This document shows, in pieces, positions 6,377 through 17,131 of a stretch of 63,680 nt of DNA. Both the position numbers and the translations under genes were made by a program. The DNA is from Geobacteraceae bacterium GWC2_55_20 (GTDB taxonomy: Bacteria; Desulfobacterota; Desulfuromonadia; Geobacterales; Pseudopelobacteraceae). Under the pieces are notes generated by a model. It was given only the letters and a program-made list of their open reading frames with translations. It made no database searches and was not told where the DNA came from. The stretch lies in the NCBI GenBank assembly GCA_001802125.1, contig MGZK01000106.1, positions 979-64,658 of the forward strand. The letters run 5' to 3'. How positions within the stretch are numbered: position 1 is the stretch's first letter; every line of letters begins with the position of its first letter.

Positions 6377-6443
6377 GCAAAGTTCCCTCGTCCTTGTTGG
6401 GGGAGTCTGTATTGAAATCTGATTAGCACAGATGTTTCTCAAA

Positions 6444-6551
6444 TCCTTCTCCCTGAGGGAGAAGGTGGCCGAAGGCCGGATGAGGGGGTAACAGTGCCGT
6501 ATGATTGCAACATTCCCCCTCACCCTGGCCCTCTCCCTCATGGAGAGGGGA
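6444..6551. repeat. palindromic dispersed repeat, related to the DUF559 element family
   Basis: Two inverted arms of about 40 bases flank a short centre. The left arm has a CTCCCTGAGGGAG hairpin followed by GGATGAGGGGG. The right arm, read on the other strand, has CTCCATGAGGGAG followed by AGGGTGAGGGGG. The layout (hairpin plus G-rich tail, inverted) is the same as the elements at 11588, 14263, 15894 and 16977, but the sequence belongs to a different subfamily. Confidence 0.65.
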
Positions 6552-6610
6552 CTGTTGAGTCAGCAAAGCAGAAGATTAGTACTGATCAGGCACTACAAAA
6601 GGAGTTTCCG

Positions 6611-11587: not shown

Positions 11588-11695
11588 CTCCCCCTCCCTT
11601 GACGGGAGGGGGTCGGGGGGTGGGTGAAGCTGCCAATGGAATCAAATGTGGCAACTCCCCCCCATCCTGACCCTCCCCCGACAAGGGGGAGGGAA
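11588..11695 (+). repeat. MITE-like palindromic element, DUF559-family
   Basis: Two G/C-rich inverted arms flank a short centre. The left arm reads CTCCCTTGACGGGAGGGGG then a GGGGGGTGGGTGAAGCTGCC tail. The right arm is its imperfect inverse (ACCCTCCCCCGACAAGGGGG). The bases just inside the left arm (GAAGCTGCCAATGGAATC) resemble the start-codon region of the DUF559 gene at 14310 (GAAGCTGCCATGAAATCC), so this looks like an internally deleted derivative in the same orientation. Confidence 0.75.
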
Positions 11696-14224: not shown

Positions 14225-14262
14225 TTGAGAATGTGAATATGGATGATTTGAGGCCGGTAAAA

Positions 14263-14699
14263 TTCCCCCGCCCCTTGCGGGAGGGGGTTAGGGGGTGGGG
14301 GAAGCTGCCATGAAATCCAGTAATTCCCTTCGCGCATTTGCCAGAGAACTACGTAACAACAGTACTGATGCGGAGCGCCATCTGTGGCGGTATTTGAGAA
14401 ACAGTCAGCTGGAAGGCGCCAAGTTCCGAAGGCAGCAACCGATTGAAGCATATATTGTTGATTTCGTTTCCTTTGACAAAAGGATTGTTGTAGAGCTTGA
14501 CGGTGGCCAGCATGCGGAAAATCCTGAGTACGACGGACAGAGAGATGCCTGTCTGCGCAGGAATGGTTTTGAAGTGCTAAGATTCTGGAACAATGAGGTA
14601 TTCGAAAATATTGAGGGAGTGCTCGAAGTCATCAGGCAGCTGTGCCTGGAAGGGGCTTCCCCCACCCCCCAACCCCCTCCCGCCAGGGGAGGGGGAGTT
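14263..14699 (+). mobile_element. DUF559-encoding palindromic element (full-length copy)
   Basis: Inverted arms of about 45 bases enclose the DUF559 gene. The left arm (14263-14309) reads CCCTTGCGGGAGGGGG then TTAGGGGGTGGGGGAAGC. The right arm (14655-14697), read on the minus strand, reads CCCTGGCGGGAGGGGG then TTGGGGGGTGGGGGAAGC. The pentamer TAAAA lies directly outside both ends (14258-14262 and 14700-14704) and may be a target duplication. The gene's last codons read through the right arm. Four shorter palindromic copies lie nearby, at 6444, 11588, 15894 and 16977. Confidence 0.7.
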
Positions 14700-14702
14700 T
14701 AA
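14310..14702 (+). CDS. DUF559 domain protein (Vsr/PD-(D/E)XK endonuclease-like)
   Basis: The 130-residue protein contains the DUF559 core: LRNNSTDAERHLWRYLRNSQLEGAKFRRQQPIEAYIVDFVSFDKRIVVELDGGQHAE, then RDACLRRNGFEVLRFWNNEVFENIEGVLEVI. The Asp in VDF, the ELDGGQH motif and the RFWN motif are those of Vsr-related restriction-endonuclease folds. The ATG at 14310 sits exactly at the inner end of the left arm, and a GTG at 14295 in the arm is the alternative. The C-terminus (SPTPQPPPARGGGV) is encoded by the right arm. No partner gene is present. Its confinement between inverted repeats suggests a role in spreading or maintaining that repeat family (inference). Confidence 0.85.
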   Translation: MKSSNSLRAFARELRNNSTDAERHLWRYLRNSQLEGAKFRRQQPIEAYIVDFVSFDKRIVVELDGGQHAENPEYDGQRDACLRRNGFEVLRFWNNEVFENIEGVLEVIRQLCLEGASPTPQPPPARGGGV

Positions 14703-14763: not shown

Positions 14764-14787
14764 GTTCACGGGCGCGTGCGCGTGAAC
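14764..14787. other. hairpin before the integron-like cassette
   Basis: GTTCACG (14764-14770) and CGTGAAC (14781-14787) form a perfect 7-base stem around a G/C-rich loop. It ends 14 bases before the putative recombination point at 14801/14802. A GTTGGGT (14748-14754) that also fits the core-site consensus GTTRRRY lies a little upstream. It may be a remnant of a recipient site or an unrelated hairpin. Confidence 0.4.
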
Positions 14788-14801
14788 TGTTCAAGAACGA
14801 G

Positions 14802-15334
14802 TTGGACAGAAGGAAAAATTAATGGATAAAGTTCGCGTTATAGATAATTGGCCTACACCTGAAGCAGGTGCGCCGAATCCCCAAGTGCTTGCAGATGATA
14901 ATCGCTTGGTTTTACGTTACTACACCACAGACGAGAGAATTGCTGTTATCGAGTTCCCTCTTGTATACATCTTCACTTTTGGAAGCCCAGGTGACGAGTC
15001 GCTGAATGGGCATCCTTTATACAAGCATGGACTTGAGTTTTACCGCGTTCATGAAATTGAAGATTCATCCTGGATAACAGAACTAGAAAAACAAAATTCA
15101 GTTCATCCTCGTCACGATAGGGCATGGTTTCTTAAAGACAAGCGGCATTATGTTTTCACCTTTCACGATTCCACCTTAGAATGTGTCGCAATTGAAAAAG
15201 ACAACAGTTTGCCATCAGTACATATCTGTGAAACAAAAGAAGAGGCGGATCGTCTATTTCATTAAAGAGAAGGATGTCCAACATCGCGGCGGCACGCGGT
15301 CTCCGCTTCGCTCCGCCGGTGCGCCCCGGCCACG
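14802..15334 (+). mobile_element. candidate single integron gene cassette
   Basis: The 533-base segment has the anatomy of an integron cassette. It begins with TTGGAC preceded by G (GTTGGAC, 14801-14807, matching GTTRRRY). A single gene begins 20 bases later, and an attC-like palindrome starts 11 bases after the stop. In the circular form the 3' end would join the 5' end to give GTCCAAC...GTTGGAC, perfectly complementary core sites. The downstream junction GTTACAC (15334-15340) breaks the consensus and would be recipient DNA, as expected for insertion into a secondary site. No integrase gene is in the window. Confidence 0.6.
14822..15265 (+). CDS. hypothetical protein, candidate cassette gene
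   Basis: I do not recognise this 147-residue protein. It is soluble, acidic and rich in aromatic residues (VIEFPLVYIFTFGSPGDES, GLEFYRVHEIEDSSWITELEKQNSVHP, HYVFTFHDSTLECVAIE), with no signal peptide or membrane segment. The DNA is clearly AT-richer than its neighbours, a sign of recent acquisition. AAGGA precedes the ATG. The gene fills almost the whole candidate integron cassette. Cassette genes of this size often encode orphan or toxin/antitoxin-like proteins, but nothing here decides its function. Confidence 0.75.
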   Translation: MDKVRVIDNWPTPEAGAPNPQVLADDNRLVLRYYTTDERIAVIEFPLVYIFTFGSPGDESLNGHPLYKHGLEFYRVHEIEDSSWITELEKQNSVHPRHDRAWFLKDKRHYVFTFHDSTLECVAIEKDNSLPSVHICETKEEADRLFH

Positions 15335-15340
15335 TTACAC
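15276..15340 (+). other. attC-like recombination site
   Basis: It starts with GTCCAAC (15276-15282), fitting RYYYAAC, and ends at GTTACAC (15334-15340), where the recombination point would be between G15334 and T15335. The intervening 51 bases form an imperfect G/C-rich fold, with GGCACGCGG opposite CCGCCGGTGCGCC around a TTCG centre. The mismatched, bulged stem is characteristic of attC rather than of a terminator. Confidence 0.55.
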
Positions 15341-15893: not shown

Positions 15894-16001
15894 TTCCCCC
15901 TCCCTTGACGGGAGGGGGTTAGGGGGTGGGTGAAGCAGCAACTTTGGGTATTCCATTGCAACTTCCCCCCTCCCTGGCCCTCCCCCGCAAGGGGGGAGGG
16001 G
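15894..16001 (-). repeat. MITE-like palindromic element, DUF559-family (inverted orientation)
   Basis: The arms CCCTTGACGGGAGGGGG and CCCGCAAGGGGGG each carry the G-rich tail. On the minus strand the inner end of the right arm reads GAAGTTGCAATGGAATACC, again close to the DUF559 start region (GAAGCTGCCATGAAATCC), so this copy lies opposite to the full element at 14263. Confidence 0.72.
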
Positions 16002-16102
16002 ATGCTTTACCGATTGAAAAATGTTATTTAAATAAGCGCGACCCACCTTGGGCGTATCTAAAAATCACAAACCCGATATCATCAAACCTAAAGGAGAATC
16101 AC

Positions 16103-16497: not shown

Positions 16498-16932
16498 ATG
16501 AAACCAATATGTTTGCCCGCCACACTGGATTCACTGGATGAGATCGGAAAATACGTGGTGGCCGCGACCACCGAGGCCGGGCTTGATACCAAGGCCGCCT
16601 ACGGCATGAGGCTTGCCGTGGACGAGATCGCCACCAATATCATCACCCACGGCTATGAAGAGGCCGGCAGGAGCGGGGAGATCAACCTGAGCGGAGTGTT
16701 GAGCGATTCCTCCCTGACCATGGTGCTGGAAGATACCGGCATCCCTTTCGATCCGCGCAGCCAGGCTGCGCCGGATGAGGACGACCTCTGTCTGCCGCTG
16801 GAGGAGCGTTCCATCGGTGGCCTGGGAATCTTCCTGGTGTTGAAGGGGGTGGATGATTTCAGCTACGAGTACGCGGAGGGGCGCAACCGCAATATTCTGG
16901 TGGCCAAGCGCCAGTCTGTCGCAAACTCATAA
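16498..16932 (+). CDS. RsbW/SpoIIAB-like serine kinase (HATPase_c anti-sigma regulatory factor)
   Basis: The 144-residue protein has a GHKL ATPase fold: N-box VDEIATNIITHGYEEA, G1-like LEDTGIPFDPR and G2-like IGGLGIFLVLKGVDDFSYEY. These kinases phosphorylate STAS antagonists on Ser and can bind sigma factors or other targets. The ATG at 16498 follows AGGGGTTGTT. The longer in-frame frame beginning at 16048 covers the STAS gene in another frame and is spurious. Partners in the window are the STAS proteins at 11716 and 16103 and the PP2C at 18730. Confidence 0.88.
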   Translation: MKPICLPATLDSLDEIGKYVVAATTEAGLDTKAAYGMRLAVDEIATNIITHGYEEAGRSGEINLSGVLSDSSLTMVLEDTGIPFDPRSQAAPDEDDLCLPLEERSIGGLGIFLVLKGVDDFSYEYAEGRNRNILVAKRQSVANS

Positions 16933-16976
16933 AATGACAGTTTCTTCCAGGTAGGTTCTTGCAGTGGCCTTAAAAG

Positions 16977-17084
16977 TCCCCCTCCCTTGGCGGGAGGGGG
17001 GCAGGGGGTGGGGGAAATTGCCACGAAGGTATTTCATTGCAGCTTCACCCACCCCTCAATCCCCTCCCGTCAAGGGAGGGGAGG
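16977..17084 (-). repeat. MITE-like palindromic element, DUF559-family (inverted orientation)
   Basis: The arms CTCCCTTGGCGGGAGGGGGG and CCCCTCCCGTCAAGGGAGGGG surround a short centre. Read on the minus strand, the inner end is GAAGCTGCAATGAAATACC, which matches the DUF559 start region best of all the short copies. TAAAA lies outside both ends (16971-16975 and 17086-17090), as it does for the full element. Confidence 0.75.
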
Positions 17085-17131
17085 CTAAAAGCAAAACATA
17101 ACCGGACAGAACCCGTAAAAAGGAGCATGCC

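What the first reader, a model, noticed from the sequence alone, without database searches (positions are those of the whole stretch)
14263..14699. DUF559 endonuclease-like gene enclosed by inverted repeats, with MITE-like offspring
The DUF559 gene starts at the inner edge of one 45-base G/C-rich arm and its last codons are encoded by the other. Four palindromes of about 110 bases in the first 17 kb share this layout. In three (11588, 15894, 16977) the base string just inside one arm resembles the DUF559 start region (GAAGCTGCCATGAAATCC), as though the gene had been deleted from inside a full element. TAAAA flanks both ends of two copies. This parallels RAYT transposases with REP palindromes and would make DUF559 a candidate enzyme of an undescribed repeat-spreading system.
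Basis: partly seen in the sequence, partly recalled or inferred. Interest (0 to 1): 0.82.

Follow-up and report, generated by a model that had tools for sequence, protein, structure and literature searches.

The report
Endonuclease gene in mobile hairpin repeats
A tiny bacterial DNA-cutting enzyme gene sits between two G/C-rich hairpin arms as a jumping element, and short copies that have lost the gene are scattered between other genes; this offers a likely parent for a widespread class of bacterial repeats.

Summary
The DUF559 gene (14310-14702) lies between inverted arms with the layout of the published 'intrastrand triplex' repeats: a C-rich tract, its complement, three bases, then a mirror copy. 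All three DUF559 genes of this genome lie between such arms, each of a different family. In a genus set plus a cross-phylum set, 96 of 129 DUF559 loci have flanking inverted repeats scoring 18 or more, most of arm type; Vsr genes have none (0 of 27). DUF559 and arm sequences change together.

The unit is mobile. Against a sister genome about 95% identical, 11 sites could be compared and none holds the same element: six are empty (two with exact 5-bp target duplications), four hold other sequence or repeats, one keeps a hairpin scar. Short copies match both ends of a full DUF559 element from a third genome, with the gene missing. DUF559 is constrained (dN/dS about 0.1) and folds like the homing endonuclease I-Bth0305I and, more weakly, Vsr.

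That DUF559 itself catalyses movement is inferred; association in trans is only suggestive. My searches found no paper linking DUF559 to these repeats. It works like REPIN/RAYT with an unrelated enzyme.

The parts
14260..14305 (+). Left arm, family a: C-rich tract, loop, complementary G-rich tract, TTA, mirror G-rich tract
   Evidence: layout read from the sequence
14310..14702 (+). DUF559 gene (Vsr/EDxHD-type endonuclease fold); last codons encoded by the right arm; an upstream GTG at 14295 is also possible
14655..14700 (-). Right arm, family a, inverted, 91% complementary to the left
11588..11693 (.). Short copy, family a; sister genome G027 carries a different (family e) repeat at this intergenic site
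15894..16004 (.). Short copy, family a; G027 carries another triplex-type repeat here
16935..17115 (.). Short copy, family a (arms about 16979-17081), whole inserted unit of 181 bp; absent in G027
16930..16934 (.). Left TAAAA of the 5-bp target duplication
17116..17120 (.). Right TAAAA of the target duplication (one extra A follows)
6445..6549 (.). Short copy, family c, same arm family as the DUF559 locus L003 of this genome; insertion about 6377-6598, empty in G027

Best explanation
This is an autonomous mobile element of about 500 bp: outer ends, two inverted triplex-type arms, and one gene for a DUF559 endonuclease of the Vsr/EDxHD fold. Short, gene-less derivatives (about 160-190 bp, arms around a loop of about 35 nt) are its non-autonomous offspring and insert between genes. 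Shown here: enclosure of the gene, co-variation of gene and arms, derivation of short copies from a full element, recent insertion with short target duplications at some sites, purifying selection on the gene. Inferred: DUF559 recognises the folded arm of its own family and makes the cuts that release a copy and open the target with a staggered cut of about 5 nt; host replication and repair finish the insertion.
For: All 3 DUF559 genes of this genome lie between inverted arms of three families. Genus: 37 of 54 loci with both flanks score >=18. Named survey: 55 of 74 reach the 99th percentile of 1222 same-locus control positions after dropping L122. By one shared ORF-edge method, >=18 in DUF559 72 of 121, Y1_Tnp 12 of 28, Vsr 0 of 27. 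Arm and protein similarity correlate: Mantel r 0.64 (37 genus loci) and 0.30 (59 named loci), 0 of 5000 permutations each; different DUF559 genes in one genome have unlike arms (mean 0.33, 23 pairs), genes >=60% identical in other genomes like arms (bin means 0.66-0.72). Short copies = full element minus gene. 11 comparable sites against G027: 6 empty, 4 with other sequence or repeats, 1 hairpin scar, none shared. dN/dS 0.04-0.15 where calculable. Model pLDDT 89.2; the only fold matches with E <= 0.001 are 3hrl and I-Bth0305I (two chains); Vsr follows at E 0.039.
Against: No enzymatic test. Copy number in trans is weak when only intact genes count (family a p=0.057, family e p=0.11); p=6e-4 only if three genomes with gene remnants are added, a choice made after seeing the counts. 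G001 and G009 have 17 and 19 family-a arms but no family-a gene. A family-e gene in G001 (L244) has no scoring arms and that genome only one family-e match. 33 of 129 DUF559 loci score below 18, and a few of the 96 (e.g. L242) are not of arm type. Exact 5-bp duplications at 2 of 6 empty sites, 3 bp at one, unclear at three. A lone nuclease has no obvious strand-transfer step. Physical linkage alone would make gene and arms co-vary.
Confidence: 0.7

Rival explanations
1. DUF559 is a passenger. Another enzyme of the host (for example a Y1/RAYT-type transposase or an unknown recombinase) moves anything that carries these arms.
For: Y1_Tnp genes occur in 35 of 39 genus genomes, ten matches in this one. 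Some genomes keep many arms without a matching DUF559 gene.
Against: Seven of the ten Y1_Tnp places of this genome were read: none carries family a, b, c or e arms, and four of the six with both flanks show other inverted repeats. None of 30 Y1_Tnp loci of the genus contains the exact family-a motif. Arms go with DUF559 type, not host genome. DUF559 is constrained.
Confidence: 0.17
2. The repeats are not mobile; they arise and vanish by replication slippage at unstable triplex/hairpin DNA (the instability view of Holder et al. 2015).
For: Single-hairpin scars at three sites (G027 at the DUF559 site, E. coli strains War and AVS0575) look like slippage losses. Holder et al. report high variability around TM_ECO sites (PMC4666352, sections read).
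Against: Slippage explains loss, not copies of one 160-190-bp unit at many unrelated sites, empty sites without any arm, 5-bp duplications, or outer ends shared with a full element in another genome.
Confidence: 0.05
3. Homing-type gene: DUF559 cuts one homologous site and is copied into it; the arms only protect or terminate it.
For: Nearest solved folds are NGO0050 (3hrl) and the homing endonuclease I-Bth0305I (3r3p).
Against: Copies lie at many unrelated places; short copies without the gene spread as well; different repeat families occupy the same site in sister genomes.
Confidence: 0.05
4. DUF559 here is a repair or defence nuclease (Vsr-like) and the arms are ordinary terminators.
For: Vsr-like fold; a DUF559 protein of Caulobacter (VsrA) has been proposed to act in mismatch repair (PMC12907096, passages read).
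Against: Vsr genes lack such arms (0 of 27; drawn from the phylum, not from the same genomes as the DUF559 set). PADLOC gives only weak local matches to parts of large proteins.
Confidence: 0.05

Closest known systems
REPIN / RAYT (TnpA-REP) systems
   Same: Short inverted hairpin pairs scattered between genes, one nuclease gene enclosed by such hairpins, enzyme and repeat co-diversify
   Different: Enzyme is of the PD-(D/E)XK/EDxHD type, not a Y1 HUH transposase; arms are mirror-tract triplex type; short target duplications at some sites; some gene-deleted copies keep the ends of the gene
TM_ECO / PIT intrastrand triplex repeats of E. coli and others (Holder et al. 2015, PMC4666352)
   Same: Arm architecture Y-loop-R-NNN-mirror R; paired inverted types; by reading, both arms around a Desulfobacterales DUF559 (L125) fit the published TM_ECO consensus, one with loop TTA, one with CCG
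   Different: The paper reports no associated mobile element; here the arms enclose DUF559, and E. coli ycjD (DUF559) has such arms only on its 3' side (by eye) and looks like a relic
Vsr very-short-patch repair endonuclease
   Same: Fold (1vsr E 0.039, 1cw0 E 0.07)
   Different: Vsr genes are not enclosed by arms (0 of 27)
EDxHD homing endonuclease I-Bth0305I (PDB 3r3p)
   Same: Second best solved fold; a selfish nuclease (recalled)
   Different: Here many unrelated target sites and spread of gene-less short copies
MITEs of insertion sequences
   Same: Internally deleted, multicopy, inverted ends, short target duplications at some sites
   Different: The parent encodes only a DUF559 endonuclease, no known transposase

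Membership tests
REPIN/RAYT | Y1 HUH transposase enclosed by the repeats | tested here: not met
   The enclosed protein is DUF559; seven own Y1_Tnp loci carry no arms of families a, b, c or e
REPIN/RAYT | Paired inverted hairpins dispersed in the genome | tested here: met
   26 of 37 arms in the loci listed for G000 and 40 of 42 in the G014 loci have an inverted partner (the 37 include one arm of E. coli locus L008 and at least one chance match in coding DNA)
REPIN/RAYT | GTAG/CGTC tag at the palindrome | not tested
   Feature known from the title and listing of PMC3733652; no systematic scan of the arms was done
Intrastrand triplex motif (TM_ECO/PIT) | Y tract, loop, complementary R tract, 3-nt loop, second R tract able to lie antiparallel on the first | tested here: met
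   157 arms: mirror score at 3-nt spacing 0.68, direct 0.54, shuffled tails mean 0.549 max 0.583; in the 84 best arms A or T over A in 157 of 165 places, G over G in 594 of 605
Intrastrand triplex motif (TM_ECO/PIT) | Exact TM_ECO consensus CCCTCNCCC-N3-6-GGGNGAGGG-N3-GGGNGAGGG | tested here: not met
   Window arms read GGGAGGGGG-NNR-GGGGGTGGG; the L125 arms printed fit the consensus by reading
Vsr repair endonuclease | Vsr fold | tested here: met
   1vsr E 0.039, 1cw0 E 0.07 in Foldseek, prob 0.99; weaker than I-Bth0305I
Vsr repair endonuclease | T:G mismatch nicking | not testable with these tools
   needs an enzyme assay
EDxHD homing endonuclease | Related catalytic domain | tested here: met
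   profile match to 3r3p E 0.0028; fold E 1e-4, TMq 0.68
EDxHD homing endonuclease | Insertion at one homologous allele | tested here: not met
   copies at many unrelated places
IS/MITE | Multicopy gene-deleted derivatives sharing both ends with a full element | tested here: met
IS/MITE | Target site duplication | tested here: inconclusive
   exact 5 bp at 2 of 6 empty sites, 3 bp at 1, unclear at 3

The most novel reading that the evidence does not exclude
DUF559 is the mobilising enzyme of a bacteria-wide class of transposable elements that use a lone Vsr/EDxHD endonuclease and arms selected for a three-stranded DNA fold; the intrastrand-triplex repeats of E. coli and many other bacteria are the gene-less offspring of such elements, with ycjD as a relic of the parent in E. 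coli.
Probability: 0.55. Interest if true: 0.93.

Novelty: categorically new. Interest (0 to 1): 0.85.

Why it matters
The study of G/C-rich triplex-type repeats that I read (PMC4666352) found no mobile element behind them and left the mechanism of their variability open. This finding links the class to one small, constrained enzyme gene in many phyla and makes the origin of the repeats directly testable. If right, it is a transposition system built on an enzyme fold known for repair and homing, and it offers a natural setting in which an intramolecular triplex layout appears to be kept by selection.

Tried and rejected
RAYT as the mover: not my main reading, because the Y1_Tnp loci read bear other inverted repeats or none and no family a, b, c or e arms. 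Vsr repair gene: Vsr loci have no arms. Defence system: only weak PADLOC matches to parts of large proteins. TAAAA next to the arms as target duplication: rejected, it recurs next to the arms at other copies. G027 as a virgin empty site for the DUF559 element itself: rejected, it keeps a hairpin scar of about 24 bp, so it is a loss. Copy-number association as proof of action in trans: weak. Pattern search of 20 named genomes: its reversed-pattern control is meaningless because that pattern is mirror-symmetric; all 9 genomes that I had picked by eye for that arm type have at least 2 matches, but 4 of the other 11 do too. E. coli ycjD as an intact element: rejected, arms lie only on its 3' side and in the three other strains read efflux genes sit there. 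Empty sites for 6 of the 12 extra copies could not be judged (flanks missing or on different contigs).

Full report
WHAT IS THERE. The DUF559 gene at 14310-14702 lies between inverted arms 14260-14305 and 14655-14700; the right arm encodes its last codons. The window lies in a 4.55-Mb genome of 186 contigs (G000). The genome has three DUF559 matches. All three sit between inverted arms, of three families: a (window), b (L002), c (L003).

ANATOMY OF AN ARM. Each arm reads: C-rich tract, short loop, complementary G-rich tract, three bases, second G-rich tract. The second tract is the mirror image of the first, with A or T over A. From 96 loci (192 arms) my finder gave 160 arms; 31 had no purine-rich hairpin and were left out. 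For 157 with enough tail, the score at 3-nt spacing is 0.68 for mirror and 0.54 for direct order; dealing tails out among arms gives mean 0.549, maximum 0.583 in 1000 shuffles. In the 84 arms with mirror score >=0.75 the letter over A is A 88, T 69, G 7, C 1, and over G is G 594 of 605; these 84 were chosen by mirror score, so this describes and does not test. In some families the link is longer and can form a small hairpin (GGCC-GAA-GGCC type). This is the layout of the class II intrastrand triplex motif TM_ECO of Holder et al. 2015 (PMC4666352; abstract, part of methods, most of the results up to the K-12 section, the instability section, and part 1 of 2 of the discussion read). That paper reports no association with transposons, phages or plasmids and calls the mechanism of variability unclear.

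HOW GENERAL. I scored the best inverted repeat between the flanks of each DUF559 gene. Genus: of 65 matches listed I used 57 (the 8 left out are weak or partial), 54 with both flanks; 37 score >=18 and 32 >=22. Same-locus control positions in the first 29 genus loci had maximum 17 (108 positions). Named survey: the 80 best of 571 confirmed loci, so biased towards proteins like this one; 5 dropped for contig ends; 56 of 75 reached the 99th percentile (21.9) of 1222 control positions (95th percentile 17.5, maximum 49); one of the 56 (L122) owes its score to runs of N, leaving 55 of 74. Together 96 of 129 loci reach 18; at least two places (L052/L115, L041/L151) were reached by both routes, and a few of the 96 (for example L242, L167) are not of arm type. 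By their titles the records with scoring repeats include Proteobacteria, Nitrospirae, Chloroflexi, Melainabacteria and Omnitrophota. By one shared method based on ORF edges, >=18 was reached by 72 of 121 DUF559 loci (136 given), 12 of 28 Y1_Tnp loci (30 given; expected to carry REPs, so a positive control) and 0 of 27 Vsr loci (30 given; from the phylum, so other genomes). DUF559 against Y1_Tnp by rank test: p=0.051.

CO-VARIATION. Protein identity and arm similarity correlate (Mantel r 0.64, 37 genus loci; r 0.30, 59 named loci; 0 of 5000 permutations each). Host is not the cause: 23 pairs of different DUF559 genes in one genome have mean arm similarity 0.33, like the 0.29-0.35 of unlike genes in different genomes, while genes >=60% identical in different genomes have bin means 0.66-0.72. 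Since gene and arms are neighbours, linkage alone could give this.

SHORT COPIES ARE THE ELEMENT WITHOUT ITS GENE. A BLAST of one 181-base stretch gives 44 matches in G000, both strands of palindromes counted apart. In genome G014 four copies keep the first 57-90 and last 86-136 bases that match the window element, with the gene middle missing, share near-identical outer ends (GAGTTTGGAC ... GTCCAAACTC) and lie in different surroundings; G025 has one such copy. G014 has only weak DUF559 fragments, best E 4.6e-8. A full element in G017 (L052) has at its ends the outer sequence and arms of short copies elsewhere: the G014 copy in L210 matches full-element positions 58-144 at 90% and 488-548 at 93%; the G000 copy in L021 matches 64-136 at 85% and 488-548 at 93%; missing is the stretch from about the start codon to the last codons. 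Twelve stretches (two loci twice) were compared; all gave matches, the weaker ones at 73-79%.

MOBILITY. Genome G027 contig C24 is collinear with window 2-23407 at about 95% (main blocks 94.6-95.8%, two shorter ones 86-91%). Six breaks of more than 100 window bases interrupt this block; all five element sites are among them. At 16977 G027 has CTCATAAAAGGAGCATG, and the window has a 181-bp insert between TAAAA (16930-16934) and TAAAA (17116-17120), between a stop codon and the next putative ribosome-binding site. At 6377-6598 G027 is empty, with no exact duplication; this too lies just before a putative ribosome-binding site. At 11588 and 15894 G027 carries other triplex-type repeats. At the DUF559 site G027 keeps one hairpin of about 24 bp, so the element was lost there. 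The sixth break (14784-15335) holds different gene content. Twelve more family-a copies were tested by flanks: six had both flanks on one G027 contig; four of these are empty (L021, L015, L014, L019), one holds a family-e pair (L023), one holds other sequence including a family-c pair (L016); six could not be judged. So 11 sites are comparable and none is shared. Target duplications: exact 5 bp at 16977 (TAAAA) and L019 (TCGGA), 3 bp at L015 (TGA), unclear at L021, L014 and 6377.

E. COLI. K-12 ycjD (DUF559) has a TM_ECO arm on its 3' side and a decayed one at its 3' end, none seen upstream. Of 5426 genomes, 3330 have one place covering >=80% of the ycjD region; three loci read from other strains have efflux genes there, as PMC12817139 reports (passages). 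At paired TM_ECO sites I read nine alleles of other strains aligned with MG1655: five lack arms (AP022261, CP062824, CP009104, AP045049, CP107114), two are single-hairpin scars (CP074717, CP124483), one keeps part of one arm (CP032515), one (CP053599) has different sequence; a tenth (CP049077, ygfF-gcvP site) shows no arm in the printed stretch. Many other rows were listed, not read.

ENZYME. DUF559 within clades has dN/dS 0.04-0.15 where calculable; synonymous sites are near saturation and many pairs give no value. Invariant residues over 54 sequences include E22, D51, E62, D64, H68, D75. The AlphaFold model (pLDDT 89.2, pTM 0.83) matches 3hrl (NGO0050, TMq 0.72), 3r3p (homing endonuclease I-Bth0305I, TMq 0.68) and, more weakly, Vsr; by sequence 3hrl E 1.3e-38 and 3r3p E 0.0028. 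That YcjD is a PD-(D/E)XK member whose profile finds Vsr was published (PMC1189080, passages).

IN TRANS. Family-a arms: eight genomes with a family-a gene or remnant have 2-50; 31 without have 0-19, 24 of them 0 or 1. After removing each element's own arms: p=6e-4 with remnants (added after the counts were seen), p=0.057 with intact genes only; family e p=0.11, with one family-e gene (L244, G001) lacking arms and copies. Between the sisters, G000 has DUF559 families a, b, c with 21 a-arms and 6 e-arms; G027 has one DUF559, of family e, with 2 a-arms and 24 e-arms.

HOW IT MAY WORK. Inference: the enzyme binds the folded arm of its own family, perhaps when the strand is single during replication, cuts near the outer ends, and makes a staggered cut in open intergenic DNA; host repair fills the gap and leaves 3-5 bp duplications. 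The stretch 16936-17113 folds strongly as a single DNA strand (z -8.0, 0 of 200 shuffles). Whole-unit hairpins also explain loss by slippage, leaving one hairpin.

LITERATURE. Searches: DUF559 (all 14 papers listed), DUF559 with repeat terms (20 of 4,757 listed), ycjD (all 8), Box C with triplex terms (3), COG2852 (all 4), triplex/PIT terms (20 of 563), Vsr with repeat terms (13 of 14), EDxHD (12 of 15), Geobacter repeats (12 of 268), REPIN/RAYT with nuclease terms (6). No listed title or abstract start links DUF559 to these repeats; of the 14 DUF559 papers I read passages of two (PMC12907096; PMC9403480, which assigns a DUF559 gene to the EDxHD homing family). Passages of two Geobacter genome papers describe multicopy, partly palindromic intergenic sequences without that link (PMC2996986, PMC2700814; supplements not read). 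A MITE review has none of the words DUF559, endonuclease, triplex, BoxC or RAYT (PMC10969869). Most subscription papers are not in the library.

Noticed in passing
G000 loci L349, L350, L351, L352: Y1_Tnp (RAYT-like) genes of the same genome are flanked by their own inverted repeats (e.g. GGGACGTAGTTGCTTTATTGC), so a second repeat-nuclease system seems to live beside this one.
   Followed up: partly
L016 and L032 (G000 C16 and C18): Two short copies share nearly the same extra stretch in one hairpin loop (CTAGAGGCACCTACTTTTGG), which suggests that one was copied from the other.
   Followed up: no
window 11588 and 15894; L023: Different repeat families occupy the same short intergenic gap in sister genomes, as if the gap is a preferred or tolerated site.
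   Followed up: partly
L003, L046, L249 arms: In some arm families the three-base link is replaced by a longer one that can form a small hairpin, while the mirror tract is kept.
   Followed up: no
E. coli hrpB-mrcB (CP074717), alx-sstT (CP124483); G027 C24 near 10345: Single-hairpin scars recur where an arm pair or whole element has been lost, fitting recombination between an inner and an outer tract.
   Followed up: partly
window 14784-15335: Next to the DUF559 element the sister genome G027 carries different gene content at the same place.
   Followed up: no
L008 1270-1450 (E. coli K-12): Between the TM_ECO arm and ycjD there is a stretch resembling a second copy of the 3' end of ycjD, perhaps a truncated former element (by eye).
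   Followed up: no
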